Shown here in pieces: positions 26,771-42,202 of a stretch of 64,000 nt of DNA. The notes beneath the pieces were generated by a model. It saw only the letters and a list, made by a program, of their open reading frames with translations, was not told where the DNA came from and did no database searches. The stretch is from Psococerastis gibbosa (lineage: Eukaryota > Arthropoda > Insecta > Psocodea > Psocidae). A program made the translations under genes and the position numbers. The stretch spans positions 2,300,910 to 2,364,909 of the forward strand of contig OZ020491.1 in assembly GCA_963971405.1 (NCBI GenBank). The letters run 5' to 3'. The first letter of the stretch is position 1. Every line of letters starts with the position of its first letter.

Positions 26771-26776
26771 TGCTTA
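26771..26776. repeat. Left target-site duplication of the Polinton
   Basis: TGCTTA directly precedes the element and is repeated exactly at 42197-42202. The host site appears to have been an AT-rich SINE tail. Confidence 0.95.
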
Positions 26777-26863
26777 AGTAGTATAGAAAGGGGGTTTCTG
26801 GCGCTTACCCCACCCCCCGTCGAGCTACCCCACCCCCCGTCGTGCTACCCCTCGTGGGTGGTC

Positions 26864-26894
<31 letters not shown>

Positions 26895-27044
26895 CCACCC
26901 CCCCCGTCATGCTACCCCTCGTGGGTGGTCTAATTTTTTTTTATTAATTAATTATTATTAATTTATATTATAATTATAATTATTATTATATTATTATTAA
27001 TTATATTATAATTTATATTAATTAATATTATTAATAATTTTTTA

Positions 27045-27082
<38 letters not shown>

Positions 27083-27260
27083 GTGTTAATTGAATTAAAA
27101 CATTTCTTTCTTCTTCTTCTTTCTTCTTCGTGGGTGGTCTTTGTACCCCGCCGTGCTTATCCCGTTGTCTATCTATCTCTGTACCAGGTGGGTGGTCTAT
27201 GACGCACCCCCCCCCCCCCTCCCCGTAGTACAGCGTACATCTAGAATGTTCCAAATGTGT
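26777..27260. repeat. Terminal C-rich, poly-T and AT-rich block of the left TIR
   Basis: Begins with direct repeats of a CACCCCCCGTCG-type unit and GTGGGTGGTC (26854, 26921, 27130, 27188), followed by a poly-T run, an almost pure A/T stretch of about 110 bases (26940-27050), another poly-T run, and a TTC-rich tract. No credible ORF. The motif array is a candidate site for integrase, terminal-protein or origin function; this is inference. The mirror image is at about 41718-42196. Confidence 0.7.
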
Positions 27261-27366
27261 CGTTACAAAAGGCATCGCCTTGGGTTGAGGAGCTTAGTTG
27301 AAGCCAAACCTTCATTCAAGACTCAAGTAATACCACTTTATAAGTAAAATTGTATAATCTTACAAC
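27261..27366 (+). promoter_or_regulatory. Duplicated leader A, upstream of the 101-aa ORF
   Basis: About 105 bases starting CGTTACAAAAGGC and ending at the ATG. It is closely similar to 28713-28813 upstream of the polymerase ATG, including the inverted repeat AAGGC-ATC-GCCTT and a TTGAGGAGCTTAGTTGAA box. Two unrelated ORFs sharing a leader suggests a common promoter or 5' UTR control. Mirror copy at about 41612-41717. Confidence 0.6.
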
Positions 27367-27672
27367 ATGACATCTCTATTCAATAAAGTTAATGCCATCA
27401 ACCAAGTAGCCGGGCCTACCATATCAATGCGAAAACTAGTGATTGGAGTTAAATACCTAATATTGAAAATAGTGCAAATCGAAAAAACAGAATATGGACC
27501 AGCTGTAAAAGTCATATTGCGAGGATTGGAAAAAGAAGTCGTGGAATGTTTTGTGCCTCAACAATATCTGCCAGCCTTTCAACAAAGTGAAGTTACTCCA
27601 GGAGCTGAGATGTATCTTATCGTTTCAAGCCATCGGGGAAAAAATAGTGTCAACCTACAGATCATAGAATGA
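27367..27672 (+). CDS. Small OB-fold-like protein, left TIR copy
   Basis: 101 aa, intact, with start directly after leader A. The central part has the spacing of small OB-fold proteins: a beta-rich stretch GVKYLILKIVQIEKTEYGP, then hydrophobic strands (AVKVILRG, VVECFVPQQYLPAF) and a C-terminal strand EMYLIVSSH. A TEYG-type turn followed by a LP-containing strand is common in small proteins of animal Polintons that I judge to be single-stranded DNA binders. No catalytic residues are seen. An ssDNA-binding role in protein-primed replication would fit its place beside the polymerase gene. That role is inferred from the fold pattern only. An identical gene lies in the other TIR. Confidence 0.6.
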   Translation: MTSLFNKVNAINQVAGPTISMRKLVIGVKYLILKIVQIEKTEYGPAVKVILRGLEKEVVECFVPQQYLPAFQQSEVTPGAEMYLIVSSHRGKNSVNLQIIE

Positions 27673-27941
27673 ATATTTCATGATGTATTATTATTGTAAA
27701 CTACAGAAATAATGTAAATATATGAATAATTTCTATATATATTTTGTTCTTGTTTTATTAATTTCATAACTAGTTTTAAGCTTACAGTTAGATGATGATG
27801 AGTATTAAAAACTAATGTTTGAAAGAAACAAGCTATTGCTTCAGTCATAATCGAGTACTTGAACGGTGAAGGGTTATCATAATCATAGACTATGAAATGA
27901 TGTAAATCAAATAATTAAACGAGTACATTAGCTAATTTTAA
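27673..27941. other. AT-rich spacer in left TIR
   Basis: The 3' flank of the 101-aa ORF. It contains AATAATG/TATATA-rich sequence but no ORF or structured repeat that I can support. Mirror at 41037-41305. Confidence 0.5.
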
Positions 27942-28597
27942 TAAATCTATCCGAAGCATAGGTTTATGGGAAGTATTGATTTGGTAAATAGTTAACCGTG
28001 TGCAGGTTCAAACCTGTTGTGAATCACCAGGTGCATATAACTCTGTACAGCCGTCTAATGGTTCAGACAAACAACACATTAATAAATCTACCCCTCGCGG
28101 ACAGTCCATTGTAAGCTAATGTGATTTTTGTTTTCGTAAATCTATCCAACACTTATATTGAAGGGAAGTATTGATTTGGTAAACAGAGTGCAGGTTCAAA
28201 CCTGTTGTGAATCACCAGGTGCATATAACTCTGTACAGCCGTCTAATGGTTCAAACAAACAAGCCATTAATAAATCTACCCCTCGCTGACAGTCCATTGT
28301 AAGCTAAAGTGATTTTTGTTTTCGTAAATCTATCCAACACTTAGGTTGAAGGGAAGTATTGATTTGGTAAACAAATAACAGGGTGCAGGTTCAAACCTGT
28401 TGTGAATCACCAGGTGCATCCAACACTTAGGTTGAAGGGAAGTATTGATTTGGTAAACAGAGTGCAGGTTCAAACCTGTTGTGAATCACCAGGTGCATAT
28501 AACTCTGTACAGCCGTCTTATGGCTCAAACAAACAAGCCATTGATAAGTCTACCCCTCGCTGACAGTCCATTGTAAGCTAAAGTGATTTTTGTTTTT
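27942..28597. repeat. Subterminal tandem repeats, left TIR
   Basis: Four units (starts about 27942, 28136, 28324, 28430; full unit about 190 bases, the third cut to about 106). Each has the 14-bp inverted motif CAGGTTCAAACCTG (28003, 28191, 28386, 28465) followed by TTGTGAATCACCAGGTGCA, which holds a second small palindrome CACC-A-GGTG. GGTTCAAACC also resembles a Pol III B box, but no A box at tRNA spacing is convincing. Noncoding. Confidence 0.85.
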
Positions 28598-28624
28598 GCA
28601 TTAGTTGCAATCGATCGTTAGAAA

Positions 28625-28675
28625 ATGAATGGTGTCTTAACAACATATTATCCGCTTCGTGATGGACAATCTATC
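28625..28675 (+). pseudogene. Relic of the 233-aa gene start inside left TIR
   Basis: From the ATG, the first 16 codons match the start of the gene at 39816 with only two amino-acid changes (residues 2 and 5); similarity extends upstream over CGTTAGAAA. It then diverges into unrelated sequence and stops after 42 codons at 28753. It is a broken copy of the gene's 5' end, not an expressed gene as far as can be seen. Leader B begins just downstream. Confidence 0.8.
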
Positions 28676-28712
28676 CCTGTACCCTTACCATCTATCCTTA
28701 GTGGGTGGTCGT

Positions 28713-28813
28713 CGCTACAAAAGGCATCGCCTTGGGTTGAGGAGCTTAGTTGAAACCGAACCTTCATTCGCGTAGTACCACTTCATTGTAGTGAATTTGT
28801 GTAATCGTACAGC
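28713..28813 (+). promoter_or_regulatory. Duplicated leader B, upstream of PolB
   Basis: Similar to leader A (27261-27366), sharing the ACAAAAGGCATCGCCTTGG segment, then diverging near the ATG. A GTGGGTGGTC motif (28701) sits immediately upstream. It would serve PolB on the left and, through its mirror at about 40165-40265, the zinc-finger ORF and 233-aa gene on the right. Confidence 0.6.
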
Positions 28814-31800
28814 ATGGAATCGAAGAAAAGGAAACTGAACGCGAGGGAATATGTGTGTAGAATATGTGCTGTGAGTTTCACACTAAATTGTCATTTGAAA
28901 AGGCATGCTATAAACAAACATGGAGTTAGTATTATACCGTGCAAAAAATGTAAAGCTACATTCACATGCAGAGAGGACCTATCTCATCATATATTGCAGC
29001 GGCATACATCAGCTAATCGCGGGAAGGAAACTGAACAAATCACCCCAAAACTGACATCTGCTGGGAATGGAGAGGACTGCAAGGCATGCGGGGGCAAAAT
29101 CAACAACTCCAGTCCACTTACAGTTCTGTGTAAAGAATGTTCATCTATCTTTTCGTGTAAGTATGAGAATCCTGTATCTGTTAAAACCCTTGAGTGTAAA
29201 TATATTTGTGAATTCTGTTCGGTCCCTTTTGCTCGGAAGTATAGTTTGAAAGTCCACATATTAAGCATACATATTATTAATTGTTTGAATTGCAAGAAAT
29301 TGTTTATGAGGGAAGATTTTACTAATCATAAGAATAATTGCACAATTATGAGCGGGGGAGCACTATCCAACGAGGAGAACTTTTTATGCAAAACATCTAT
29401 AGCTCTAGATGGTGTAGTAAAACAATACAATTATAAAAACATAACCATACATGATCCCGTTGTATATTTAAATAATATGGAAGGTGAGGTTGATTCTATT
29501 ACAACTGAAAACATTAAACTTTTTAATGCAATTAAATGGTATGTAGCCTTACACATTAAATTTGAACGCGGACCCGACAATAATAAAAACTATACTGAAG
29601 CATGGTTTCATGCTAAAAACGAACAACTTTTCCTCACTGATGACTCCACAATAAAATATCAACAAATGATTGAACAAATTTTAGTAAAAATAGATAAATT
29701 TCAAGCAATGGGAAGCGGGTGGGTGTTGAAATCTTTAAAACGTTTTGTTATTTTTATTGCTGAATATAATCCATGCAGTGGTAGTAGTTACATCCCTTTA
29801 CCCAAAAAAATCTATAACACTAAAGCAGTAATCAATATTAAAAATGACGATCTCAAATGTTTTATATGGTCAATTTTAGCATACTTACATCCAGTAAGTC
29901 GGGATGCTCAGCGGGTTTATAATTATAAAAAGTATGAAAAAGAGTTAGATATGAGTGGTATAACTTACCCAGTATCTTTGCAAGTCATTTCAAAATTTGA
30001 AAAAAATAATAATATTGGAGTAAATGTGTTTGGTTATGATCACAGACTGTACCCATTATATTTATCACAAAGTCACCATTATAATAAGCAGGTGGATCTG
30101 CTTTACATAACGGAAGACGAAAATTCACATTATTGTCTTATTAAAAATTTCAACAAACTTAATTTCTCAATCACTAAACATAAGGAACAAAAGTTTTATT
30201 GTCGTTGGTGCATACACGCCTTTAGTAGTGCTGAACGCTTACATGAACATAAGCCACTCTGCTCAAGACATGATCCTCAAAAAACCACATTTCCAATTAA
30301 GGAGAAAAGCACTATGAAATTTGATAAGGCACAATATATGATCCCTGTAGCATATAGAATATATGCCGATTTCGAGAGCATTCTCAGTCCCGTTGAAGGG
30401 ACTATTTGTAACACTGAAAAATTATCTGCACATATACCATCAGGGTTTTGTTATGTTGTTGTAGATATCAATGGGAATAAGTTTAAAGAACCGGTAGTTT
30501 ACAGGGGAGCCAATGCTGTTGATGTGTTTTTGAAATCGTTATTAAATGTTAAGGATGAAATTTTAAACATTTATAAAAATATTAAAGCAGTAATTATGAC
30601 TGATAAGGATAGAGAAAATTTTAAAAACTCTGTCATTTGTAATGTTTGTCAAAAACCACTAGGAAATGATCGTGTAATAGACCACTGTCATATAACGGGA
30701 AAATATAGACAAGCATTACATAATGTTTGTAATATGAGCAATTTTCGAACTCCAAAACATATCCCCGTTTTTATGCATAACTTAAAACGTTATGATGGTC
30801 ATCTTATCATGGAAGGGGTTGGGAAACTAAAAAATATGAAAATTACTTGTATAGCTAAAACTATGGAGGAATATATAGCCTTTAGTATTGGAGAGTTACG
30901 CTTTTTAGACACTTATCAATTTATGGCCTCCTCTTTAGATTCATTAGTTAAAAATCTTGTTGATGCGGATAAAAATAAATTTAAAATTATGAAAACATGT
31001 TTTGTGGGTGAAAAATTAGACTTGATGTTGAGGAAGGGTGTCTTCCCCTATGAATATATAACGCACGAATCAAAATTTAATGAGGAACACTTACCTCCAA
31101 TTGATGCATTTTTTAGTCAATTAACTCAAGAGGGGATTTCACAAGAAAAATATGAACATGCTCAAAAGGTGTGGAATGCTTTTAGTATAAAGAATTTAGG
31201 AGAATACCAAGACTTGTATGTATTAACAGACACCCTTCTCCTTTGCGATGTTTTTGAAGCCTTTAGAGCCTTATGTTTTGAAAACGATAACCTCGAAATT
31301 TGTCACATGTACACAGCACCAGGGCTAGCTCTTCAGAGCTGTCTGAAAATGACAGGAGTAGAACTTGAGCTATTGAGCGAACCTGATATGTATTTGTTTT
31401 GTGAGGCTGGGATTCGCGGGGGTATAAGTATGATTTCAAAAAGATTTGCGGAAAGCAACAATAAATACTTAAAAAAATTTGACTCAGATAAGCCATCCAA
31501 ATTTATAGTATATTGGGATTGCACTAACTTATACGGACATGCGATGCGTCAATTTTTACCTATTAGTGGGTTTCGCTGGATGGAGGAGGAAGAAATCAAA
31601 AACTTTAATGTAATGCTCGCACCTGATGAGGGCGATGATGGGTTCATATTACAGGTGGACATGGAATATCCACAAAAATTACATGATTTACATAATGAAT
31701 ACCCACTAGCAGCTGAACATTGTGTTGTAACATCAGACATGATTTCCCCCTATTGTAAGGAATTTCTCGCTGAAAATGATATATCTTTAACATCCAACAT

Positions 31801-32794
31801 CTCAAAGCTTATTCCCAACTTAAACGATAAACACAACTATATAATACATTATCGAAATTTGAAGCAATGTTTAGAATTGGGATTAAAATTAAAATGTATA
31901 CATAAAATTTTAGCTTTTAAGCAAAGCGCTTGGATGCGACCCTTTATCGATTTTAACACAGAAAAACGGAAATTAGCTTGTAATGATTTCGAGAAGGATT
32001 TTTATAAATTGAAAATTAATAGTATGTATGGGAAGACAATGGAGAATGTTAGAAATCACGCAAAATTAGAGTTAGTTAACACTGCCAAACGAGCTCGTAA
32101 ACTTATCTCATCCCCTGCATTTAAAGATTTTAAGATTTTTTCCAACGATTTAATAGCAGTCCGGTCAAAAAAAACTAATATTTTGCTAAACAAGCCAATA
32201 TTTATTGGCCTAACCGTTCTCGAACTATCCAAGGTAGTTATGTATGAATTTCATTATAACTTTGTAAAACAAATGTATGGTGATAAAGCTGCACTGATTT
32301 TAACAGATACAGATTCGCTCGTTTATGAGGTTGAGAGTGATGATTTGTACACTGATTTAAAACCATATCCCCATTTATTTGATAACTCAGTATATCCTCC
32401 GAACCATCTCTTATACAATATTGAAAATAAAAAGAAAGTGGGAACGTTCAAAGATGAAAATGCTCAATCTCACATTTTACAATGTGTTGCTTTACGCCCA
32501 AAATTGTATTCCCTTTTAGAGGAGGGAAAGGAGAAGAAAGTGGGCAAAGGTATAGTTCGTTCAACCCTTAAACATCATATTAACCATCAAGACTATTACA
32601 ATACCTTATTTAAGCCTTGCATAGCAAAAGACTCACGTAAACCAATGTTCCGTATTCAAAGTAGAGATCATAAGCTTTTTACAATTAAACAGCAAAAAGT
32701 CACTCTTAGTCCTTATGATGATAAACGGTATGTGTGTCGTAATGGAATTGATAGTTTAGCTCATGGTCATTATCGCATTATAGATATGTCTTAG
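28814..32794 (+). CDS. PolB: Protein-primed DNA polymerase B
   Basis: 1326 aa, replicates the element. N-terminal C2H2 fingers (C15/C18/H31/H36 and C43/C46/H59/H64) are followed by further Cys-rich segments to about residue 170. A finger near 460-490 precedes the exonuclease domain. Exo I has D519 and E521 (YADFES), Exo II N656/D661 (HNLKRYD), Exo III Y802/D806. Between Exo I and II is a zinc/HNH-like segment, C609-x2-C612, DHCHITGKYR at 623-632, HNVCN at 636-640. Polymerase motifs: A with D902 (DCTNLYG), B with K1067...N1069-S-M-Y1072-G, C with D1165-T-D1167-S. All catalytic residues are present. Length is typical of Polinton PolB. The first 112 codons lie in the TIR. The stop is followed by a tandem copy of the gene's 3' end. 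Confidence 0.97.
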   Translation: MESKKRKLNAREYVCRICAVSFTLNCHLKRHAINKHGVSIIPCKKCKATFTCREDLSHHILQRHTSANRGKETEQITPKLTSAGNGEDCKACGGKINNSSPLTVLCKECSSIFSCKYENPVSVKTLECKYICEFCSVPFARKYSLKVHILSIHIINCLNCKKLFMREDFTNHKNNCTIMSGGALSNEENFLCKTSIALDGVVKQYNYKNITIHDPVVYLNNMEGEVDSITTENIKLFNAIKWYVALHIKFERGPDNNKNYTEAWFHAKNEQLFLTDDSTIKYQQMIEQILVKIDKFQAMGSGWVLKSLKRFVIFIAEYNPCSGSSYIPLPKKIYNTKAVINIKNDDLKCFIWSILAYLHPVSRDAQRVYNYKKYEKELDMSGITYPVSLQVISKFEKNNNIGVNVFGYDHRLYPLYLSQSHHYNKQVDLLYITEDENSHYCLIKNFNKLNFSITKHKEQKFYCRWCIHAFSSAERLHEHKPLCSRHDPQKTTFPIKEKSTMKFDKAQYMIPVAYRIYADFESILSPVEGTICNTEKLSAHIPSGFCYVVVDINGNKFKEPVVYRGANAVDVFLKSLLNVKDEILNIYKNIKAVIMTDKDRENFKNSVICNVCQKPLGNDRVIDHCHITGKYRQALHNVCNMSNFRTPKHIPVFMHNLKRYDGHLIMEGVGKLKNMKITCIAKTMEEYIAFSIGELRFLDTYQFMASSLDSLVKNLVDADKNKFKIMKTCFVGEKLDLMLRKGVFPYEYITHESKFNEEHLPPIDAFFSQLTQEGISQEKYEHAQKVWNAFSIKNLGEYQDLYVLTDTLLLCDVFEAFRALCFENDNLEICHMYTAPGLALQSCLKMTGVELELLSEPDMYLFCEAGIRGGISMISKRFAESNNKYLKKFDSDKPSKFIVYWDCTNLYGHAMRQFLPISGFRWMEEEEIKNFNVMLAPDEGDDGFILQVDMEYPQKLHDLHNEYPLAAEHCVVTSDMISPYCKEFLAENDISLTSNISKLIPNLNDKHNYIIHYRNLKQCLELGLKLKCIHKILAFKQSAWMRPFIDFNTEKRKLACNDFEKDFYKLKINSMYGKTMENVRNHAKLELVNTAKRARKLISSPAFKDFKIFSNDLIAVRSKKTNILLNKPIFIGLTVLELSKVVMYEFHYNFVKQMYGDKAALILTDTDSLVYEVESDDLYTDLKPYPHLFDNSVYPPNHLLYNIENKKKVGTFKDENAQSHILQCVALRPKLYSLLEEGKEKKVGKGIVRSTLKHHINHQDYYNTLFKPCIAKDSRKPMFRIQSRDHKLFTIKQQKVTLSPYDDKRYVCRNGIDSLAHGHYRIIDMS

Positions 32795-33032
32795 GTTTAA
32801 AAGTTTGTTTTAAGTGATTGTATGTAAAGACATTGATTTCTTTTAAAATATGTGTATTATAAAATTTGTATATCATAAAATGGTTTACATTCGTTTAGCT
32901 CATGGTCATTATTGTATTATAGATAAGTCTTAGGCTTAAAAGCTTGTTTTAAGTGATTATATGAAAAGACATTGATTTCTTTTAAAATATGTGTATTATA
33001 AAATTATTATATCATAAAATGGTTTACATTCA
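32755..33032. repeat. 139-bp tandem duplication of the PolB 3' end
   Basis: 32755-32893 and 32894-33032 are near-identical direct copies covering the last 13 PolB codons, its stop and the 3' flank. The second copy still encodes the C-terminal residues up to its own TAG but is outside the ORF. It forms the gap between the convergent PolB and major capsid genes, so it may contain duplicated transcript-end signals. Confidence 0.9.
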
Positions 33033-33033
33033 T

Positions 33034-34248
33034 TTACAATAGTTGATGTACAATACCAGTTAAAGGTACATATTCATATAAGCAGTCGCTGATGAGTAGA
33101 CAGTAGGCATTCATTTTATTAGGGAAATTAGTTTGGCCATGAATTTCCAAACGTATGTCAACACCACCTGTTTTAATGAGCTCATTCTGTCGCGAGCAGT
33201 CAATAATCCAAATCGGGTATGAATTTAGAAATTCACTACGGGAAACGTTTGGGGCTGCTTCATCCTGCATGTAGTAGTGTTTCCGGAAATTGAGAAAATT
33301 TTCATACAACACAGCGACAGCCTTTTTGTTGAAGTTCGCCTGTAGCGGATGGTATGGATAGCATTCTGAGCCGAGGAATAGTTGCATTTGTTGTATAGCA
33401 CATTGATCGAAGGCACTAGCGTCTTTCGTAATATCATCCGCTCGGGCAGCTTGGAAGCCAATAATAGCAAACCGTGGTTTTTCACTTGAAGAAATCATGC
33501 GCACAGGCCAATTAATTGATGATGTTGATGAGGGAATGTTTGGATATTCATACAGTTGCCATGTTCGAAAGCCAATAGGCAACCGCACGTTTTCCCTTAG
33601 TACACTCAGCAATTCAAGACGTTGGCTATCACTCACACTTACGAAAGGTATTTCCCACAGCACAGTAGTTAGTTTCAATGTTAAGTCTTTAGTGTTTGAA
33701 AGATCCCGCATGGCATTCAGATTGCTGCGTGATCGCACTAACACAAGTTCTTGTTTAACGTTGAGTAGAACTCGTCGAAAATCCTCGCAAAATCCAAACA
33801 GCATTTTCAATGGCACGCAAAAATTAAAGTTCCTCTCTGTTTTATTGGCATCGGTATAAAATGAGCTGTTTGTAAGGCGTTGTGCATCTTGAGCGGTGAA
33901 TGATACTAACCCTTTAAGCTGAGTAGCAATACCAGGGTTTCGCACATGATCAACAGTTATCCCATTGAGTTCATAGCGTATTTCAGAGAATAAGTGTGCC
34001 ATAGCATTAGCGCTAAGCCCGTCTTCATCTTCATAAGCAATTGTTGTCACACCTTTTTCTAGCACCCCTTCAATATACAGTCGGCTTTCACATGGTAGAG
34101 TAAGTATATCTTGTTGATGGATTGGTATGCGAATTTCATCATTATTATTTAGACTACTTGATGAATAGGGTGCAATCTTATGGTATTCATAACGCGTTAA
34201 ACTCTCATCCACGAGAATGGACTCCTTCACGTTTAGTATTGATGTCAT
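33034..34248 (-). CDS. MCP: Major capsid protein, double jelly-roll type
   Basis: 404 aa. The sequence is beta-rich throughout, with features I recognise from Polinton capsid proteins: early PIHQQDILTLPCESRLYIEG strand pattern, a central CVPLKMLFGFCEDFRRVLLN segment joining the two halves, PVRMISSSEKPRF at the start of the second half, and a C-terminal SYPIWIIDCSRQNE stretch. It would form the pseudo-hexameric capsomers. It is shorter than vertebrate Polinton MCPs (often above 550 aa), as is usual in invertebrate elements. Last gene of the leftward block; its start is overlapped by the 57-aa ORF. The frame is intact. Assignment rests on pattern and context; a structure prediction would test it. 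Confidence 0.85.
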   Translation of the reverse strand: MTSILNVKESILVDESLTRYEYHKIAPYSSSSLNNNDEIRIPIHQQDILTLPCESRLYIEGVLEKGVTTIAYEDEDGLSANAMAHLFSEIRYELNGITVDHVRNPGIATQLKGLVSFTAQDAQRLTNSSFYTDANKTERNFNFCVPLKMLFGFCEDFRRVLLNVKQELVLVRSRSNLNAMRDLSNTKDLTLKLTTVLWEIPFVSVSDSQRLELLSVLRENVRLPIGFRTWQLYEYPNIPSSTSSINWPVRMISSSEKPRFAIIGFQAARADDITKDASAFDQCAIQQMQLFLGSECYPYHPLQANFNKKAVAVLYENFLNFRKHYYMQDEAAPNVSRSEFLNSYPIWIIDCSRQNELIKTGGVDIRLEIHGQTNFPNKMNAYCLLISDCLYEYVPLTGIVHQLL

Positions 34249-34378
34249 CGTGGATTTTAAAACCTATTGATTGTAAATATTGCTTGTTCTCGTTAGTGAG
34301 CCGAATATAACGTGCTTGCGTGGAAGTCCGATGTGGAATGATGTATGGTGCATACCGCTGTGCAATATATACTCTCAT
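34205..34378 (-). CDS. 57-aa ORF between capsid genes
   Basis: The ATG overlaps the stop of the minor capsid gene as ATGA, and the ORF ends 44 bases inside the start of the major capsid gene. It encodes a basic, Tyr/Gln-rich peptide starting MRVYIAQRYAPY with a LTNENKQYLQSIGFK segment near the middle, a phrase like those in small ORFs next to capsid genes of other invertebrate Polintons (from memory, unverified). The overlap arrangement suggests coupled translation. No domain is recognised. It could be a small virion or assembly factor; this is inference. Confidence 0.6.
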   Translation of the reverse strand: MRVYIAQRYAPYIIPHRTSTQARYIRLTNENKQYLQSIGFKIHDDINTKREGVHSRG

Positions 34379-35085
34379 TGTCGTTTACGTAAATGAAGAC
34401 GTAAAGTAATAGTTTCTCCTCGGAAATTAACCGTCTCGTTGTCTTGATCGACAATGTCTAACGTTAGACTTGTAAGTACATTCGTATTTATAGCATGGTA
34501 GATGATTGTATTTGGTGCTTCAACAATCCGATAGCCAGGTGGTACATTAGGATAAAATTCATGAACGGCATGTGATGGTCTACCATTCAAATATGATCCA
34601 CTTGTAATATTACAATTAATTCGAATTGCATTGACTTTGGATATTTTAATGCTATGTGGTGATTCATATCTTTCCCCAGGGAAAAATGTCATCACATCAT
34701 AACCAAAGCCTAGCAGGTATCCTAGTTCTTCATTTACTTCAATTTCAAAGTCTTCATGTATTATCATAACTTCCGAATGTAGGGTGTTCCGATTTGCGCG
34801 TATCCGTATGATTTCAGAACCCCACACTTGATTAATATACTTGACTACATCTAACAATTCGTAGGATCCAGTTGGTATTTCAATTATTCTAGTCTTCGGA
34901 GGAATTGAATTGTTTACAATTTTAACGACACCATTTGAGAGATTAGGAATTGAATTGTATGTTTCGAGGTCAAGCAAGCCGATTTCCCATGCACCCTCAA
35001 GTACAATCGGTGGGAAGTAGTTGCTACTTAGCAATGAGTCGTTACCGCTCAATGTCAATGCTAGCGACATAATGCAATAAATCAA
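34375..35085 (-). CDS. mCP: Minor capsid (penton) protein, single jelly-roll type
   Basis: 236 aa from the first ATG; an ATG five codons in (35070) starting MSLALTLSG is the more likely start. The N-terminal stretch FPPIVLEGAWEIGLLDL and the C-terminal pairs of beta strands ending in TITLRLHLRKR match the layout of Polinton minor capsid proteins, which form the fivefold vertices. It lies 13 bases after the protease gene and overlaps the 57-aa ORF by 4 bases. Intact. Confidence 0.85.
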   Translation of the reverse strand: MIYCIMSLALTLSGNDSLLSSNYFPPIVLEGAWEIGLLDLETYNSIPNLSNGVVKIVNNSIPPKTRIIEIPTGSYELLDVVKYINQVWGSEIIRIRANRNTLHSEVMIIHEDFEIEVNEELGYLLGFGYDVMTFFPGERYESPHSIKISKVNAIRINCNITSGSYLNGRPSHAVHEFYPNVPPGYRIVEAPNTIIYHAINTNVLTSLTLDIVDQDNETVNFRGETITLRLHLRKRQ

Positions 35086-35098
35086 ACATATTCATAAC

Positions 35099-35479
35099 TT
35101 ATATAACTTTTAATAGTATGGAAAATGGATCTTTCATGTAGAGAAATTTTAAACATAACTGCCCACAATTTGATGTTGAATAGGTTTGATACGATTGATG
35201 GTTGTAGTATATTGTACAGTTGTGGAAATATTGTTTCAATTCCAATGGTGGTTGTAAGTCCCCGAAGCTATCGAAGTATATAACTCGGTTTCTAATCTTG
35301 CGGTAAGCAACCCAATGTGTACCAGGTCCTATAGCATCATCTAAATTAATTATTCCAGCTTCATTATGTTTCCATGGTATGCGAGGCAATGCATTTCGCA
35401 TGAACACACCACGAAAATGAGGAACGTTAGCGGTGAATTTTATAAGTTCCACATTAGTCATTGGACGGTTCCGAGGCAT
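35099..35479 (-). CDS. PRO: Adenain-like cysteine protease
   Basis: 126 aa, C5/Ulp1-type maturation protease. The catalytic triad is visible in order: H55 in GTHWVAY, D70 in YFDSFG, and C105 in SNCGQLCL. The N-terminal part (MTNVELIKFTANVPHFRGVF) matches the substrate-binding lead-in of the family. In Polintons and adenoviruses this enzyme cleaves capsid precursors. It starts 5 bases after the stop of the PLA2 gene and 13 bases before the minor capsid ORF, consistent with a single transcription unit. Shorter than adenovirus protease (about 200 aa) but normal for Polintons. Confidence 0.93.
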   Translation of the reverse strand: MPRNRPMTNVELIKFTANVPHFRGVFMRNALPRIPWKHNEAGIINLDDAIGPGTHWVAYRKIRNRVIYFDSFGDLQPPLELKQYFHNCTIYYNHQSYQTYSTSNCGQLCLKFLYMKDPFSILLKVI

Positions 35480-35484
35480 GCAAC

Positions 35485-36210
35485 TTAGTTTTTTGAATAA
35501 GGATGCAAGTAGAGTCCACTCCCCTTCTTATGTGGCGCTAAATACAAGCCTTTCCCAATAGCTATAGATTCCATAGTTTGATTATGACGTTTCATTTCTT
35601 CATACTTTTTCTGTGCACTATGGACTTTATTAACAGCTGATGTAATTCCTGCAGCACCGCCAGAGAGAGCGCCTAGTGCAGAAAGCCCCGCAAATATCGG
35701 GATAAGTGGTAATATACCACCTGTCTTGGCAATAGGTATGATTCGGGGAAGTTTCACCTTATTTCCCTTTGATTTCTTCACAGATTTATAAGCAATCTTG
35801 ATTGTATCCGCCACAGTGGGTGGTTTTGCAAGCTTTATCGCTTTCTTCGCTGAAGTCAATAGTGATCTGAAGGATACTTTCCGCTTCAGCCCAAATCCCA
35901 GCTTTCGTTTAACTTTCATTGCAGCTGTCACACCTAAAGCGACAATTTTTTCCCCTATAGATGAATCTTTTGCCTTAACACGTTGCCACGCTTGATCTGC
36001 TAATTTTATATCCGCTACGTGTCGATTAGTTATATCTGATGACTGCGAATAAGCTATATCGTGTTCACGGCAAGCTTGATCAAGTTTGTTTCTCCCTCGA
36101 TCTCCTCGAATTAATCGTTTTTCTAACTTGGTGCCTGGTCCGCAGAATTGATAGCCGGGGATATGTGCTTCAAATGGTAACTTATTAATTATGCTGTTCA
36201 CCATAGACAT
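35485..36210 (-). CDS. PLA2-domain virion protein with hydrophobic C-terminal part
   Basis: 241 aa from the ATG at 36210; the open frame runs to 36300, but the extension would overlap the ATPase start region and lacks conserved sequence. Residues about 17-60 hold a parvovirus-VP1u-type phospholipase A2 core: the calcium loop FCGPGT and the catalytic REHDIAY with adjacent His-Asp. Next comes a Lys-rich basic region, then a hydrophobic Ala/Gly segment (IFAGLSALGALSGGAAGI), a predicted helix, and a C-terminus with two GLYL-type motifs (KGLYLAPHKK, SGLYLHPYS). Basic, hydrophobic and GLYL features recall adenovirus pVI/pX-like minor core proteins. Likely role: breaching membranes during entry. First gene of the leftward block. 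Confidence 0.85.
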   Translation of the reverse strand: MSMVNSIINKLPFEAHIPGYQFCGPGTKLEKRLIRGDRGRNKLDQACREHDIAYSQSSDITNRHVADIKLADQAWQRVKAKDSSIGEKIVALGVTAAMKVKRKLGFGLKRKVSFRSLLTSAKKAIKLAKPPTVADTIKIAYKSVKKSKGNKVKLPRIIPIAKTGGILPLIPIFAGLSALGALSGGAAGITSAVNKVHSAQKKYEEMKRHNQTMESIAIGKGLYLAPHKKGSGLYLHPYSKN

Positions 36211-36276
36211 TCTCAAATGTGAATGAGTAAAATACATATATACAGTGGTATTTATAACTTTTTTATCAGTCATATA
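36211..36276. promoter_or_regulatory. Divergent promoter region
   Basis: 66 AT-rich bases between the divergent starts of the PLA2-domain gene (-) and the packaging ATPase (+). Both blocks must begin here, so a bidirectional promoter is inferred; a TATA-like ATACATATATA lies at about 36233. Confidence 0.5.
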
Positions 36277-36972
36277 ATGAAGCTCGTACCACAGAGACAC
36301 AAGTTCAGTGTGATTCTAAGTCAAGAAGATGAAGATGTACGGAATAATAGAAAGCATGGACCTTTACTCCCCGGATCGATTCGTGGTGCAATCTGCGGCC
36401 CATCAGGTTGTGGTAAAACAAGCCTACTATGCAGTATGGTATATCATCCGTTTGGGCTACGATTTGAAAATGTATACTTATTCTGCAAAACATTGTTTCA
36501 ACATAAATACCAGCAGCTTGAGACAAATGTAAATTCTATTCGTGGGATGACTTTTACGGGGTCAAGCGATTCGGTTACACCACTCTCTGACATCAAACCT
36601 AACTCTGTGCTAATATTCGACGATGTTTCATGTGAATCACAAACGGAAATTCGAAATGTCTACTGTATGGGTCGTCATAAAGGGATTGATTGCTTCTATC
36701 TCACTCAGACCTATACCTCTATTCCAAAACATTTGTTGCGAGACAATTTGAATTTTATCGTGCTATTCAAACAGGATTTACTTAATATAAAGAATGTGTA
36801 TAGAGACCATGTTGCGGGGGATATGGATTTAGCGACATTCATGAAACTCTGCGCCGAAGCATGGAAAGAGTCACATGCATTCCTAGTTATTGCAAAAGAT
36901 TTTGGATTAAACGATGGACGATATCGGCAGGGATTCGATCACTACTTCAAAGATATAAATAACTCTGCTTAA
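36277..36972 (+). CDS. ATP: Genome-packaging ATPase, FtsK/HerA type
   Basis: 231 aa starting MKLVPQRHKF; the open frame extends upstream to 36223, but that start would lie in the divergent promoter. Walker A is GPSGCGKT (residues 41-48) and Walker B is VLIFDDV with D115/D116. The sequence after Walker B (CMGRHKGIDCFYLTQTYTSI) fits the sensor region of the A32-like packaging ATPases of Polintons and large DNA viruses. The protein would drive DNA into the capsid. It opens the rightward block; the next gene begins 47 bases downstream. Confidence 0.93.
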   Translation: MKLVPQRHKFSVILSQEDEDVRNNRKHGPLLPGSIRGAICGPSGCGKTSLLCSMVYHPFGLRFENVYLFCKTLFQHKYQQLETNVNSIRGMTFTGSSDSVTPLSDIKPNSVLIFDDVSCESQTEIRNVYCMGRHKGIDCFYLTQTYTSIPKHLLRDNLNFIVLFKQDLLNIKNVYRDHVAGDMDLATFMKLCAEAWKESHAFLVIAKDFGLNDGRYRQGFDHYFKDINNSA

Positions 36973-37019
36973 CACTCAACTCATCATTATTCATTCAACT
37001 GTGACTCGGTGAGGTAGAT

Positions 37020-37718
37020 ATGGATACTAAAGTTATCAAGAATATTGTCAACATACACAAAGCTCTGCAGCAAAAGTACCTTAATCTTAAACGTGATCTA
37101 CACAATGAGGCTGCTCAGCAAGAGCGAAAGTTAAAACCGGTCTCGAAACCACTACAAGAATTAATTGAGTTGAACAAACAGACAGCACCAGAAAAAACAA
37201 TAAATAAACCCGGAGTTAGCAAATATTTAGACTTATTTATACCTGATCATTATAATAGGAAAACCATTGATACATACTATGGACTAACACGAAGTAATGA
37301 AGGTATATTTAGGCTGGGTTCATACCCTGTACATTTCAATGATGAAGATGATTCAATCACAATCGAAGATAAAACATGGCAAGGTACATTGGGCTTATAT
37401 GAATTATTAACCTTGAACAAGCCTGAAAACTATACTCCGGAAGATTTACAAGCTTATAAAGATATGCTGGAAAGAACTGGAGCTCATTTAACCACTAGTG
37501 GTCGTCTGAGGGGCAGTCAACGTTATAAATATCAAAAGATTATTAAACAGCTATTTGGGATAAAATCTGGTGGTGAATACCGGTATTGGAACGATCCAAA
37601 TGAACTGGTAGAACGATTACGCTTACTTAATGCATCACATGCTGCAGGACATACAAGTCATCAAAACGAAATCATTGATATTATAAGCGAATTGCGAGAA
37701 GCAAATATTATTCAATGA
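37020..37718 (+). CDS. DUF8207-like Polinton protein
   Basis: 232 aa, function unknown. The N-terminal 60 residues are charged and helical (likely coiled coil). The core at about 85-165 (YYGLTRSNEGIFRLGSYPV, then TWQGTLGLYELLTLNKPENY, then a LQAYKDMLERTGAH helix) matches what I recall as domain DUF8207, found next to Polinton integrases. The C-terminus is a Leu-rich helix. The stop overlaps the integrase start as ATGA, so translation is probably coupled. It may be a virion or core protein; no catalytic motif is seen. Confidence 0.75.
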   Translation: MDTKVIKNIVNIHKALQQKYLNLKRDLHNEAAQQERKLKPVSKPLQELIELNKQTAPEKTINKPGVSKYLDLFIPDHYNRKTIDTYYGLTRSNEGIFRLGSYPVHFNDEDDSITIEDKTWQGTLGLYELLTLNKPENYTPEDLQAYKDMLERTGAHLTTSGRLRGSQRYKYQKIIKQLFGIKSGGEYRYWNDPNELVERLRLLNASHAAGHTSHQNEIIDIISELREANIIQ

Positions 37719-38629
37719 AGCAAGCTTTGGTTGATGAAATTCATCGGCCTGCTCGACGGAATTATCCTCGACGTCATGTGACTCTTAAAGGAATGCATGA
37801 TTTATGGCAAGCAGATCTAGTGGAAATGATTCCATATTCAAGGATTAATAAAGGATATAAATATATTCTAACAGTGATAAATGCATTCACAAAATTCGGT
37901 TATGCAGAAGCAGTAAAAACTAAATCTATGAAAAATGTTACTGAAGCTTTCATAAAAATTCTCAATAGAGCTCCACAAGCTCCTGCTCACCTCCAGTCAG
38001 ATATGGGACTAGAATTTTTCAACATGCGAATGAAAAGTCTTCTAAAACAATATAGCATTAATCATTATGCTACGTATTCTACACTGAAAGCTTCAATTAT
38101 TGAACGCTGGAATCGCACTCTGAAAAATCGAATGTGGAAGGAATTCAGCTTGCAGGGAAATTATAAGTGGTTGCATTTACTACCTCGTCTAGTGCAACAA
38201 TATAACACTACCAAGCATAGGACAATTAACATGTGTCCTGCTGATGTGCGAGAAGAACATGAAGCAAAATTATTATCCATGTATAATGCTGTTGATGTGA
38301 AAGGTACTATCAAACAGAAATTTCAAGAGGGTGATCCTGTCAGAATCAGCAAGCAAAAAGCCTTATTTGAGAAGGGTTACCAACCGAACTGGTCTACAGA
38401 AGTATTTCGCGTGCGTCTAGTACAACCTACTCGACCTACCACCTATCTCCTTGAGGCTATGGATGGCGAACCCATCTTGGGCTCATGGTATATGGAAGAG
38501 TTGCAGAAAACCAAGCATCCAGATGTATATTTGGTGGAGAAAGTTTTGAAAAAGTCAAAGGATAAATTATATGTGAAATGGCTTGGTTTCCCGAAACCTA
38601 CATGGATTAATAAAACTGATATTTTATAA
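37715..38629 (+). CDS. INT: Retroviral-like integrase with chromodomain
   Basis: 304 aa, joins element ends to host DNA and makes the 6-bp duplication. The catalytic acids are D34 (WQADLVEM), D96 (LQSDMGLEF) and E130 (SIIERWNRTL), a D-x61-D-x33-E layout of the rve fold. An N-terminal zinc-binding HHCC module is not obvious. After an SH3-like part (FQEGDPVRISKQK) the C-terminus is a chromodomain-like segment, YLVEKVLKKSKDKLYVKWLG with WINKTDIL, short of the usual last helix. Chromodomains can direct integration to marked chromatin. Overlaps the upstream gene by 4 bases; convergent with the 167-aa gene 13 bases away. Confidence 0.95.
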   Translation: MKQALVDEIHRPARRNYPRRHVTLKGMHDLWQADLVEMIPYSRINKGYKYILTVINAFTKFGYAEAVKTKSMKNVTEAFIKILNRAPQAPAHLQSDMGLEFFNMRMKSLLKQYSINHYATYSTLKASIIERWNRTLKNRMWKEFSLQGNYKWLHLLPRLVQQYNTTKHRTINMCPADVREEHEAKLLSMYNAVDVKGTIKQKFQEGDPVRISKQKALFEKGYQPNWSTEVFRVRLVQPTRPTTYLLEAMDGEPILGSWYMEELQKTKHPDVYLVEKVLKKSKDKLYVKWLGFPKPTWINKTDIL

Positions 38630-38642
38630 ATATAACTTTATT

Positions 38643-39146
38643 TTAATCAACCTCATCATGATCAATGAAACAATAGACATCTTGAAACCATTTCTGTAGT
38701 TTCTTCAAATTTATCAACGCGCAGTTTCCCGTGTGAATGCATTGTTTAGCTTCTACAGGTGGTAACTTCTGAAAACTTGCCAGAACCACAGAGTCCAAGT
38801 CATATACAACACGTTCTAGTATTCCTGCAAGCCATACTTGCTTCTCTCCTCCTTTAGTAGCAATTCTAGTATACTGATTAGCAAACTCAAGTAAAATGTT
38901 CTTTAGCCAAATGTAGTTCACGTTCCCCTCTTCCCAACGAAGTTTATGGAGATTATTTGTGCTCCATGTGTTGCTGCTTTTTACTTGAGCTGTAAGATTG
39001 GCGAATGGAAAGGGTGGACGGAAAAACCAATGCTCATACTGGTCATCGTATGCAGGGCCCATAGCCAATTCTTTGATGATGAAATTGTTTCCATTATCTT
39101 TGAAACCTTGAAACTCAACTATTCCCAGCGGTTTCATCATGTTCAA
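38643..39146 (-). CDS. Conserved Polinton protein, possibly RNase H-fold nuclease-like
   Basis: 167 aa. The N-terminal IVEFQGFKDNGNNFIIKELA has the strand-turn-strand look of the first exonuclease strands of RNase H-fold enzymes, with an acidic residue in the first strand. Further conserved-looking parts are HWFFRPPFPFANL, WSTNNLHKLRWEEGNVNY and KGGEKQVWLAGILERV. I know proteins with this set of phrases from invertebrate mobile elements but not a proven function. It overlaps the 233-aa gene by 32 bases in another frame, so the two may be coupled or one gene joined by frameshifting. Confidence 0.6.
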   Translation of the reverse strand: MNMMKPLGIVEFQGFKDNGNNFIIKELAMGPAYDDQYEHWFFRPPFPFANLTAQVKSSNTWSTNNLHKLRWEEGNVNYIWLKNILLEFANQYTRIATKGGEKQVWLAGILERVVYDLDSVVLASFQKLPPVEAKQCIHTGNCALINLKKLQKWFQDVYCFIDHDEVD

Positions 39147-39816
39147 CAGTCTGGTTCATACTGACTTGAGGTCGCTCCAACCAGTGCTTAAGTATCACAG
39201 AGCACAATTCATTTTCATAGATGGTTATAATTTCTAAATATATACGATTTGATTGATTTCGATACTTCTTCGACACTAGTTTACAACGAACATCCTCGAT
39301 AGTTGCTACTATTGGAGTTGGTGATTGCACAAACTGTAAAAAAGCTTCCATTGAAACGTCATCTGTTTCCAAGTCCATGTATACGTCTTTCAAGATATTT
39401 TTTAAGTGGAAGTTAGCCTGCATCTTCTTCTCCTCCAACTCACAGCATACAATATGAAGAATAGCTTTCAATGCTTGTATGTTCTCAATATTTACTCTAG
39501 ATAGCTTAATGTGTGATGATGGAGACTTCATTTCCAATTCATTATCATTCGTTAACATCATCGTCAGGTTTGATTTGATGAAATTAGGTGTCCATAGTAT
39601 ATTTCCGTTGTAGCACACTGTTTTCTTACGGAGATATAATCGAAATAATGGTAATGTTGCACACCAGAACTCCCATTCAATCATATTGAATACAATTTCC
39701 TGATCTTTATCAACAACTACGACGTATACTTCGAATTCTGATGTTTTGAATTGTAATCCAACAATAACACTTTGTCCATCACGAAGCGGATAATATGTGG
39801 TAAAGACACCCTTCAT
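39115..39816 (-). CDS. Unrecognised 233-aa Polinton protein
   Basis: Acidic to neutral protein starting MKGVFTTYYPLRDGQS, with beta-rich N-terminal third and helical middle (NIENIQALKAILHIVCCELEE). No domain or catalytic motif is recognised. It is the first single-copy gene inside the right TIR; its ATG lies 3 bases after the stop of the TIR zinc-finger ORF, so it probably uses the TIR leader as promoter. A diverged copy of its first 16 codons is embedded in both TIRs. Downstream it overlaps the 167-aa gene by 32 bases. Confidence 0.7.
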   Translation of the reverse strand: MKGVFTTYYPLRDGQSVIVGLQFKTSEFEVYVVVVDKDQEIVFNMIEWEFWCATLPLFRLYLRKKTVCYNGNILWTPNFIKSNLTMMLTNDNELEMKSPSSHIKLSRVNIENIQALKAILHIVCCELEEKKMQANFHLKNILKDVYMDLETDDVSMEAFLQFVQSPTPIVATIEDVRCKLVSKKYRNQSNRIYLEIITIYENELCSVILKHWLERPQVSMNQTVEHDETAGNS

Positions 39817-39819
39817 TTT

Positions 39820-40164
39820 CTAACGACCGATAGATGAACATTCTTTACACAGAACTGTAAGTGGACTGGAGTTGTTGATTTTGCCCCCGCATGCCTTGCA
39901 GTCCTCTCCATTCCCAGCAGATGTCAGTTTTGGGGTGATTTGTTCAGTTTCCTTCCCGCGATTAGCTGATGTATGCCGCTGCAATATATGATGAGATAGG
40001 TCCTCTCTGCATGTGAATGTAGCTTTACATTTTTTGCACGGTATAATACTAACTCCATGTTTGTTTATAGCATGCCTTTTCAAATGACAATTTAGTGTGA
40101 AACTCACAGCACATATTCTACACACATATTCCCTCGCGTTCAGTTTCCTTTTCTTCGATTCCAT
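39820..40164 (-). CDS. TIR copy of PolB N-terminus: stand-alone zinc-finger ORF
   Basis: 114 codons: residues 1-112 equal those of PolB (both C2H2 fingers and the CKACGG/CKEC cysteine cluster), then the TIR ends and Gly-Arg-stop follow. It is preceded by the mirror copy of leader B. The stop lies 3 bases before the ATG of the 233-aa gene. It could be a by-product of TIR expansion or make a small zinc-finger protein sharing the polymerase's DNA-binding end. Expression is unproven. Confidence 0.6.
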   Translation of the reverse strand: MESKKRKLNAREYVCRICAVSFTLNCHLKRHAINKHGVSIIPCKKCKATFTCREDLSHHILQRHTSANRGKETEQITPKLTSAGNGEDCKACGGKINNSSPLTVLCKECSSIGR

Positions 40165-40302
40165 GCTGTACGATTACACAAATTCACTACAATGAAGTGG
40201 TACTACGCGAATGAAGGTTCGGTTTCAACTAAGCTCCTCAACCCAAGGCGATGCCTTTTGTAGCGACGACCACCCACTAAGGATAGATGGTAAGGGTACA
40301 GG

Positions 40303-40353
40303 GATAGATTGTCCATCACGAAGCGGATAATATGTTGTTAAGACACCATTCAT
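40303..40353 (-). pseudogene. Relic of the 233-aa gene start inside right TIR
   Basis: Mirror of 28625-28675. It lies about 0.5 kb outside the intact gene start at 39816 and in the same orientation, so the right end carries both the intact start and a diverged duplicate. Confidence 0.8.
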
Positions 40354-40380
40354 TTTCTAACGATCGATTGCAACTAATGC

Positions 40381-41036
40381 AAAAACAAAAATCACTTTAG
40401 CTTACAATGGACTGTCAGCGAGGGGTAGACTTATCAATGGCTTGTTTGTTTGAGCCATAAGACGGCTGTACAGAGTTATATGCACCTGGTGATTCACAAC
40501 AGGTTTGAACCTGCACTCTGTTTACCAAATCAATACTTCCCTTCAACCTAAGTGTTGGATGCACCTGGTGATTCACAACAGGTTTGAACCTGCACCCTGT
40601 TATTTGTTTACCAAATCAATACTTCCCTTCAACCTAAGTGTTGGATAGATTTACGAAAACAAAAATCACTTTAGCTTACAATGGACTGTCAGCGAGGGGT
40701 AGATTTATTAATGGCTTGTTTGTTTGAACCATTAGACGGCTGTACAGAGTTATATGCACCTGGTGATTCACAACAGGTTTGAACCTGCACTCTGTTTACC
40801 AAATCAATACTTCCCTTCAATATAAGTGTTGGATAGATTTACGAAAACAAAAATCACATTAGCTTACAATGGACTGTCCGCGAGGGGTAGATTTATTAAT
40901 GTGTTGTTTGTCTGAACCATTAGACGGCTGTACAGAGTTATATGCACCTGGTGATTCACAACAGGTTTGAACCTGCACACGGTTAACTATTTACCAAATC
41001 AATACTTCCCATAAACCTATGCTTCGGATAGATTTA
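40381..41036. repeat. Subterminal tandem repeats, right TIR
   Basis: Exact mirror of 27942-28597 as far as read, with the same four units and the same shortened unit. This shows the array was copied between the ends as a block. Confidence 0.85.
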
Positions 41037-41305
41037 TTAAAATTAGCTAATGTACTCGTTTAATTATTTGATTTACATCATTTCATAGTCTATGATTATG
41101 ATAACCCTTCACCGTTCAAGTACTCGATTATGACTGAAGCAATAGCTTGTTTCTTTCAAACATTAGTTTTTAATACTCATCATCATCTAACTGTAAGCTT
41201 AAAACTAGTTATGAAATTAATAAAACAAGAACAAAATATATATAGAAATTATTCATATATTTACATTATTTCTGTAGTTTACAATAATAATACATCATGA
41301 AATAT

Positions 41306-41611
41306 TCATTCTATGATCTGTAGGTTGACACTATTTTTTCCCCGATGGCTTGAAACGATAAGATACATCTCAGCTCCTGGAGTAACTTCACTTTGTTGAA
41401 AGGCTGGCAGATATTGTTGAGGCACAAAACATTCCACGACTTCTTTTTCCAATCCTCGCAATATGACTTTTACAGCTGGTCCATATTCTGTTTTTTCGAT
41501 TTGCACTATTTTCAATATTAGGTATTTAACTCCAATCACTAGTTTTCGCATTGATATGGTAGGCCCGGCTACTTGGTTGATGGCATTAACTTTATTGAAT
41601 AGAGATGTCAT
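41306..41611 (-). CDS. Small OB-fold-like protein, right TIR copy
   Basis: Encodes the same 101 residues as 27367-27672. It is transcribed inwards from the right end, preceded by the mirror copy of leader A. Two identical intact copies per element mean doubled dosage, and sequence kept uniform by TIR conversion or recent origin. Function as for the left copy: probable OB-fold nucleic-acid binding, by inference. Confidence 0.6.
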   Translation of the reverse strand: MTSLFNKVNAINQVAGPTISMRKLVIGVKYLILKIVQIEKTEYGPAVKVILRGLEKEVVECFVPQQYLPAFQQSEVTPGAEMYLIVSSHRGKNSVNLQIIE

Positions 41612-41892
41612 GTTGTAAGATTATACAATTTTACTTATAAAGTGGTATTACTTGAGTCTTGAATGAAGGTTTGGCTTCAACTAAGCTCCTCAACCCAAGG
41701 CGATGCCTTTTGTAACGACACATTTGGAACATTCTAGATGTACGCTGTACTACGGGGAGGGGGGGGGGTGCGTCATAGACCACCCACCTGGTACAGAGAT
41801 AGATAGACAACGGGATAAGCACGGCGGGGTACAAAGACCACCCACGAAGAAGAAAGAAGAAGAAGAAAGAAATGTTTTAATTCAATTAACAC

Positions 41893-41929
<37 letters not shown>

Positions 41930-42196
41930 TAAAAAATTATTAATAATATTAATTAATATAAATTATAATATAATTAATAATAATATAATAATAATTATAA
42001 TTATAATATAAATTAATAATAATTAATTAATAAAAAAAAAATTAGACCACCCACGAGGGGTAGCATGACGGGGGGGTGGAAAAAAAAAAAAAAAAAAAAA
42101 AAAAAATCAGACCACCCACGAGGGGTAGCACGACGGGGGGTGGGGTAGCTCGACGGGGGGTGGGGTAAGCGCCAGAAACCCCCTTTCTATACTACT

Positions 42197-42202
42197 TGCT
42201 TA
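42197..42202. repeat. Right target-site duplication of the Polinton
   Basis: TGCTTA directly follows the element, identical to 26771-26776. The exact match argues for a recent insertion. Confidence 0.95.

What the first reader, a model, noticed from the sequence alone, without database searches (positions are those of the whole stretch)
26777..42196. Complete, apparently intact Polinton with capsid module
Exact 6-bp TGCTTA duplications, matched ends and uninterrupted frames for PolB, integrase, ATPase, protease and both capsid genes, all with catalytic residues. Polintons with a full morphogenesis module are candidate endogenous viruses, and this copy shows no decay.
Basis: partly seen in the sequence, partly recalled or inferred. 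Interest (0 to 1): 0.85.

Follow-up and report, generated by a model that had tools for sequence, protein, structure and literature searches.

The report
Recently multiplied intact Polinton (adintovirus-like)
This is a complete virus-like jumping element of the Polinton kind whose genes are open, one of more than eighty almost identical copies that seem to have spread through this eukaryotic genome very recently, and its right end appears to have been remade by copying its own left end.

Summary
Window 26777-42196 is a 15,420-bp Polinton with AGT...ACT ends, a perfect 6-bp TGCTTA duplication and open frames for PolB, integrase, ATPase, protease, a PLA2-like protein, MCP and penton. It is not alone: the 409-Mb home genome holds 83 MCP copies at 99-100% aa identity (82 without a stop), 84 integrase copies (80 without a stop) and a sister family at 93%. 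Of 19 other copies with both ends in hand (from 20 I chose), 18 have perfect 6-bp TSDs. Coding differences shared between copies are mostly silent (8 of 10 outside MCP, P about 8e-4). One correction: "matched ends, no decay" hides a rearrangement whose junction occurs once in the genome: the right TIR was replaced, across a 3-bp microhomology, by a 2.37-kb copy of the left arm without substitutions, adding about 0.5 kb and a truncated second PolB start. A larger mirror-arm derivative occurs elsewhere, others are candidates. The element itself is an ordinary, adintovirus-like Polinton; the recent burst and the arm copying are the interesting parts. Virions are not shown.

The parts
26771..26776 (.). 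left target-site duplication TGCTTA
   Evidence: read
42197..42202 (.). right target-site duplication TGCTTA
   Evidence: read
26777..29149 (+). left terminal inverted repeat as it stands in this copy; the part shared with the canonical right TIR ends near 28669 (inferred)
39829..42196 (-). right terminal inverted repeat, a copy of the left arm; junction at 39829-39831 with GAT microhomology; canonical copies lack about 537 bp here
27367..27672 (+). 101-aa open frame inside the left TIR, function unknown (mirror copy 41306-41611, minus strand)
   Evidence: single-sequence model too poor to use
27942..28419 (.). 188-bp tandem repeats in the TIR (mirror at 40559-41036); copy number differs between right-end pieces
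28814..32794 (+). DNA polymerase B of the protein-primed type (by homology), 1326 aa, N-terminal C2H2-like fingers and an endonuclease VII-like stretch (residues 606-641)
   Evidence: 35 of 35 scored genome copies open (320 candidates)
32754..33031 (.). 139-bp tandem duplication at the PolB 3' end, second unit beyond the stop codon
33034..34248 (-). major capsid protein (double jelly roll)
   Evidence: PF21738 9.1e-91; 1262 homologues
34375..35070 (-). minor capsid (penton) protein
35099..35479 (-). maturation protease, adenain-like, 126 aa
   Evidence: weak Peptidase_C5 hit below cut-off, translation
35485..36273 (-). PLA2-like protein
   Evidence: PF08398 5.7e-14
36223..36972 (+). A32-type packaging ATPase
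   Evidence: PF04665 4.3e-9
37020..37718 (+). open frame of unknown function, 232 aa
   Evidence: no family hit above cut-off
37715..38629 (+). rve integrase (D, D-33-E)
   Evidence: PF00665 1.4e-10
38643..39140 (-). open frame of unknown function, 165 aa
   Evidence: no family hit above cut-off
39115..39816 (-). open frame of unknown function, 233 aa, start codon at the canonical TIR boundary (the 'rightmost gene')
39820..40164 (-). truncated second PolB N-terminus (114 aa), product of the right-arm extension

Best explanation
It is a recently inserted copy of an adintovirus-like Polinton. Inferred from the family: the element is copied by its own protein-primed PolB as linear DNA and inserted by its integrase with a 6-bp duplication. 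Supported here: it belongs to a burst of more than eighty near-identical copies, and the older, shared differences between copies are mainly silent, so its genes were in use while the lineages spread. Inferred for this copy: before it inserted, copying of the right arm broke off just outside the 39115-39816 gene, switched at a 3-bp GAT match onto the left arm and ran on to the left terminus, so that this copy carries two near-perfect 2.37-kb ends.
For: TSD and ends; gene set. Copies: 83 MCP at 99-100%, 87 exact integrase 40-mers with 0 in the control, 84 integrase proteins at 98-100%, 89 near-full-length copies of the rightmost gene at 96-100%. 72 of 83 MCP copies have integrase tag and rightmost gene on the expected side, 57 at exactly the same MCP-integrase spacing. 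TSD perfect in 18 of 19 other copies with both ends. About 860 bp identical in 20 of 20 copies. Selection: shared coding changes outside MCP 8 silent of 10, P 8e-4 against 0.27 expected; all coding changes 16 silent of 23, P 2.9e-5. Arm copy: junction once in the genome, GAT microhomology, 0 substitutions over 2.37 kb, and the canonical sequence instead in 19 of 20 other right-end pieces, the 20th being truncated before it.
Against: No RNA, protein or particle evidence. The unique junction could be an assembly fault in this one copy. Some copies carry stops (1 of 83 MCP, 4 of 84 integrase, 3 of 89 rightmost gene) or are truncated. Copies were picked by identity and by me, which favours open and identical frames. 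On four contigs only 10 of 36 family-A MCP copies lie between two exact 38-bp termini, so ends vary or are missing in the others. Private changes are 5 silent to 5 replacing; the difference between shared and private is not significant (Fisher P 0.35).
Confidence: 0.8

Rival explanations
1. The copies spread only inside the nucleus as a transposon; capsid genes ride along and no virions are made. (This competes with the virus reading, not with the identity of the element.)
For: MCP copies sit on ten large contigs and one small one of a single genome, and no particle evidence exists. 20 of 30 element-sized terminus pairs on four contigs hold no family-A MCP in the scored list.
Against: Shared changes in penton, protease and PLA2 genes are 6 silent of 6 (from 8 loci picked by MCP identity), and almost all scored MCP frames are open (82 of 83); idle capsid genes should decay.
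Confidence: 0.35
2. The extended right TIR of this copy is an assembly artefact (left-arm reads used to fill the right arm).
For: Junction seen once; both TIRs differ only in gap columns; many near-identical copies make mis-assembly likelier.
Against: A 3-bp microhomology junction and different flanks with a matching TSD on both sides; another element with a mirrored arm is bounded by exact inverted termini.
Confidence: 0.2
3. Old, resident family kept uniform by gene conversion rather than a recent burst.
For: Sub-lineages share blocks of differences, and TIR sequence is exchanged between arms.
Against: 18 of 19 TSDs are still perfect, which conversion inside the element cannot keep; private changes are about 1e-4 per base.
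Confidence: 0.07

Closest known systems
Polinton/Maverick elements
   Same: 6-bp TSD, TIRs, PolB, rve integrase, ATPase, protease, MCP and penton; intact vertebrate ones are 12.7-24.6 kb with 6-bp TSDs (PMC8097293, passages seen)
   Different: TIR of 2.37 kb in this copy exceeds the 46-1,447 bp reported for intact vertebrate elements; more copies with open MCP and integrase than the vertebrate maximum of 38 intact per genome (same passages; their criterion covers all genes, mine does not); right arm rearranged. Whether other Polintons carry the PLA2-like gene was not checked (one search gave listings only)
Adintoviruses (Megastigmus wasp adintovirus, Parasteatoda house spider adintovirus)
   Same: Penton 44% identical to the former, PolB 47% to the latter
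Mavirus virophage
   Same: Penton fold
   Different: 14% identity over the aligned penton; no giant-virus link tested

Membership tests
Polinton/Maverick | 6-bp TSD and long TIRs | tested here: met
   18 of 19 other copies with both ends
[quoted passage not shown]
   homologous over residues 500-1326 to adintovirus and animal PolB; no Pfam DNA_pol_B hit; protein priming itself not testable
Polinton/Maverick | retroviral-type integrase | tested here: met
   PF00665 1.4e-10, above cut-off
Polinton/Maverick | A32-type ATPase | tested here: met
   PF04665 4.3e-9, above cut-off
Polinton/Maverick | adenain-like protease | tested here: inconclusive
   Peptidase_C5 E 0.0047, below cut-off; residues H, D, C present by eye against a recalled motif
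Polinton/Maverick | DJR MCP and jelly-roll penton | tested here: met
Adintoviruses (definition in PMC11071296, passages seen) | PolB with N-terminal OTU-like domain | tested here: inconclusive
   conserved stretch with C349 and W352 nearly invariant; fold not modelled
Adintoviruses (definition in PMC11071296, passages seen) | hexon recognisable by BLASTp to adintovirus hexons | not tested
   no protein named as an adintovirus hexon among the 120 listed of 1262 hits, most of them unnamed
Adintoviruses (definition in PMC11071296, passages seen) | integrase with C-terminal chromodomain | tested here: inconclusive
   no chromodomain hit at E<=1 in Pfam; the C-terminus looks chromodomain-like by eye
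Virus | particles, infection | not testable with these tools
   none

The most novel reading that the evidence does not exclude
The burst went through free, linear, protein-primed genomes, probably packaged in virions. Template switching between their two arms leaves a footprint seen as TIR extensions and mirror-arm derivatives, a parallel to terminal duplications of adenoviruses and poxviruses (recalled) that I did not see described for Polintons in my searches (listings only).
Probability: 0.3. Interest if true: 0.8.

Novelty: new member of a known kind. Interest (0 to 1): 0.5.

Why it matters
Whether Polintons of animals still live as viruses is open. A genome with more than eighty near-identical copies, nearly all scored ones with open capsid and integrase genes, perfect TSDs in the copies checked and mainly silent shared changes is a place where that can be tested directly (transcripts, packaged DNA). 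The arm-copy junctions would give sequence-level evidence on how the element replicates.

Tried and rejected
Lone intact copy: rejected, more than eighty copies. TIR reaching into PolB as the normal state: rejected, 19 of 20 right-end pieces lack the extension (the 20th, L100, is truncated before it), and its junction occurs once. Taking all copies to be of one length: wrong; end pieces at fixed offsets gave both exact ends for 1 of 40 places only, this copy itself, so longer pieces of 20 chosen copies were fetched. RNA element in the TIR repeats: no Rfam hit at E<=1. Relatives in IMG/VR: none confirmed for MCP alone or as an alignment. Model of the TIR frame: pLDDT 45, not used. Four inverted PolB pairs as mirror elements: one (C1:158539/172761) is two neighbours, since a terminus lies between them; one (L130) has about 1.2 kb of other DNA between the arms; the other two are unproven; so 'mirror' is claimed firmly only for C1:5631079-5643164. 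Host name: not sought. Empty site by joined flanks: not answered and not asked again. Penton search of the genome: not answered.
Full report
What is there. The window holds a 15,420-bp element at 26777-42196 between two TGCTTA copies (26771-26776, 42197-42202), read. Its ends are AGTAGTATAGAAAGGGG and the exact inverse. The repeat finder gives inverted arms that add up to about 2.37 kb, including one exact stretch of 1,940 nt. A global comparison of 26777-29149 with 39829-42196 gives 0 substitutions and 7 gap columns.

Genes. Open frames are, family hits. MCP: PF21738, 9.1e-91. Integrase: PF00665, 1.4e-10, with the second D and the E 33 residues apart. ATPase: PF04665, 4.3e-9. PLA2-like: PF08398, 5.7e-14. 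Protease: PF00770 only at 0.0047, below the cut-off. PolB has no polymerase hit in Pfam; residues 500-1326 match 4,522 proteins (only the 7,985 candidates sharing most words were scored), the 120 listed ones at 42-51% identity over 79-100% of the stretch, among them PolB of Parasteatoda house spider adintovirus at 47%. An alignment with 13 relatives keeps D519-F520-E521, Y907-G908 and D1165-T1166-D1167-S1168 invariant; reading these as exonuclease and palm motifs is recalled. An endonuclease VII-like stretch (Pfam E 1.8e-4, below the cut-off; PHROG 2.6e-7) has C609, C612, H624, H626 and N640 invariant in that alignment. Penton: 336 homologues, one named penton of Megastigmus wasp adintovirus at 44%; its model from 36 sequences has pLDDT 92 and matches the mavirus penton (E 1.8e-10) and adenovirus penton bases. 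Without a family hit above cut-off: 37020-37718, 38643-39140, 39115-39816, the TIR frame 27367-27672, and 33497-33859, which overlaps MCP and is probably not a gene (Pfam only). No homologue search in the protein database was made for these.

Copies in the home genome. The window lies at G000:C19:2300910-2364909 of a 409.2-Mb assembly in 68 contigs. A 501-bp piece gave 40 scored places of 137 candidates, all printed as 100%, one with a slightly lower score. The MCP protein gave 102 scored of 875 candidates: 83 at 99-100% identity, of which 82 have no stop and one has a TAG, and 19 at 93%, which I call family B. The integrase protein gave 126 scored of 843: 84 at 98-100% (80 without a stop, 4 with one) and 42 of family B at 93-94% without stops (rows counted by hand). 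PolB gave 35 scored of 1,320, all full length and open. The rightmost gene gave 150 scored of 366: 89 near-full-length family A at 96-100% (3 with a TAA), 3 partial family A, and 58 family B at 77-79%, partial ones and one with a TAA included. An integrase 40-mer occurs 87 times and the 38-bp terminus 199 times, reversed controls 0. Of the 83 MCP copies 72 have both the integrase tag and the rightmost gene on the expected side, 57 at the identical MCP-integrase spacing; 11 integrase tags have no MCP within 8 kb. Protein and DNA counts are lower bounds, as the tool scores only the best candidates. On contigs C1, C2, C3 and C12 the 87 listed termini form 30 inward-facing pairs under 25 kb; 10 hold a family-A MCP and measure 14.4-15.4 kb, 20 hold none in the scored list and measure 6.9-21.5 kb. 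Only 10 of the 36 family-A MCP copies on these contigs lie in such a pair, so in the others at least one end departs from the 38-mer or is missing, and the 199 termini are not all of this family.

Independent insertions. End pieces at fixed offsets found both exact ends in 1 of 40 places, this copy, because copies differ in length. I then chose 20 of the 39 others, mostly those whose left end had been found, and fetched longer pieces. Both ends were found in 19, allowing up to 3 differences in the end string; 18 of 19 have perfect 6-bp TSDs, all different from TGCTTA; one does not, its right flank running into Ns; in one copy the right end was not found. In copy C19b the flanks joined at one TSD read TGCTTTACATGCCCTC, which by eye is the reverse complement of an unoccupied repeat in this window at 42756-42843: a paralogous empty site.

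Age and selection. About 860 bp from 28640 are identical in 20 of 20 copies. Over 101,682 compared bases (one short overlap counted twice) I count 11 substitutions private to one copy, 1.1e-4 per base. With a recalled insect rate of 2.8e-9 per generation this is about 39,000 generations (19,000-69,000), a rough figure; the copies were picked by identity in small pieces, so it may be too low for the family as a whole. Among coding changes shared by copies or separating this copy from all eight others compared, 11 are silent and 2 replacing; without MCP, which was the selection criterion for 8 loci, 8 of 10 are silent, against 0.27 expected, P 8e-4; private coding changes are 5 and 5. Penton, protease and PLA2 shared changes are 6 silent of 6, all seen in those 8 loci. 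The shared-private contrast itself is not significant (P 0.35). I read this as genes that were needed while the lineages spread, with little time since.

The right arm. In 19 of 20 other right-end pieces the sequence upstream of the rightmost gene is the same canonical one, which this copy lacks; the 20th (L100) breaks off before it. In this copy the canonical text runs to 39831 and then continues as the inverse of the left arm from 29149 outward; GAT is shared by both. The junction occurs once in the genome. In the other 19 copies with both ends the best local match between left and right TIR shows 1 to 86 mismatches in 18 and none in C19b (a local method, and the repeat array can be aligned out of register), so the perfect identity here fits a one-step copy of the whole arm. 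Consequences by inspection: the right TIR grows by about 0.5 kb, gains a 114-aa truncated PolB start (39820-40164) and parts the rightmost gene from its usual upstream sequence.

Mirror derivatives. The rightmost gene occurs in nine inward-facing pairs within 16 kb (2 in family A, 7 in family B) among 12 near pairs, against 0.22 expected by chance under even scatter; the other 3 are one outward-facing and two direct. PolB forms four pairs, all inward-facing. One is a single element with exact termini: C1:5631079-5643164, rightmost gene at both ends, integrase 40-mer once, though no full integrase of it is in the scored list. Two family-B pairs also carry the integrase at both ends (C2:38102698/38109876 and C1:43547395/43555017); their termini were not seen. 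One PolB pair turned out to be two neighbours, and one (L130) has about 1.2 kb of other DNA between the arms. So arm exchange is likely recurrent, but most cases are unproven.

Known or new. By its set of features this is a Polinton. Penton and PolB are close to two named adintoviruses. Intact vertebrate Mavericks reach 38 copies in one genome (PMC8097293, passages seen); here the count of open MCP and integrase frames is about double, though I did not test every gene in every copy. I saw no paper on a comparable near-identical set in an insect or on mirror-arm Polintons in eight searches (listings, and passages of PMC6035795 and PMC12220804; passages of PMC11071308 and of PMC11071296). Most subscription papers are not held, and the founding adintovirus paper was not available. 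The host was not identified; named MCP and penton relatives are insect or wasp-virus proteins.

Noticed in passing
61937-62084, plus strand: U4 spliceosomal RNA gene (Rfam RF00015, 84 bits), so the host is a eukaryote.
   Followed up: no
C1:156488-170857 and C2:21401643-21410604 of G000: Elements with the same termini and a PolB 100% identical in protein, but no family A or B MCP, integrase or rightmost gene in the scored lists: deleted or with another right half.
   Followed up: partly
G000, family B (for example C2:28940451-28941674): Sister Polinton family, MCP and integrase 93% identical, rightmost gene 78%, near-uniform in score; no stops in 19 MCP and 42 integrase rows, one stop among 58 rows of the rightmost gene. 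Possibly a second recent burst.
   Followed up: partly
19690-20711: Host tandem array of a 145-bp unit, about 7 copies.
   Followed up: no
24949-25077 and 42756-42883: Two copies of a dispersed host repeat flank the element; an unoccupied copy matches the target site of another Polinton copy.
   Followed up: partly
other copies, genes equivalent to 35485-36273, 36223-36972 and 38643-39140: Single copies elsewhere carry small insertions or deletions in the PLA2-like gene, its overlap with the ATPase, or the 38643-39140 gene; described only.
   Followed up: no
20803-21330, minus strand: Open frame resembling, by eye, a non-LTR reverse transcriptase remnant; not searched.
   Followed up: no
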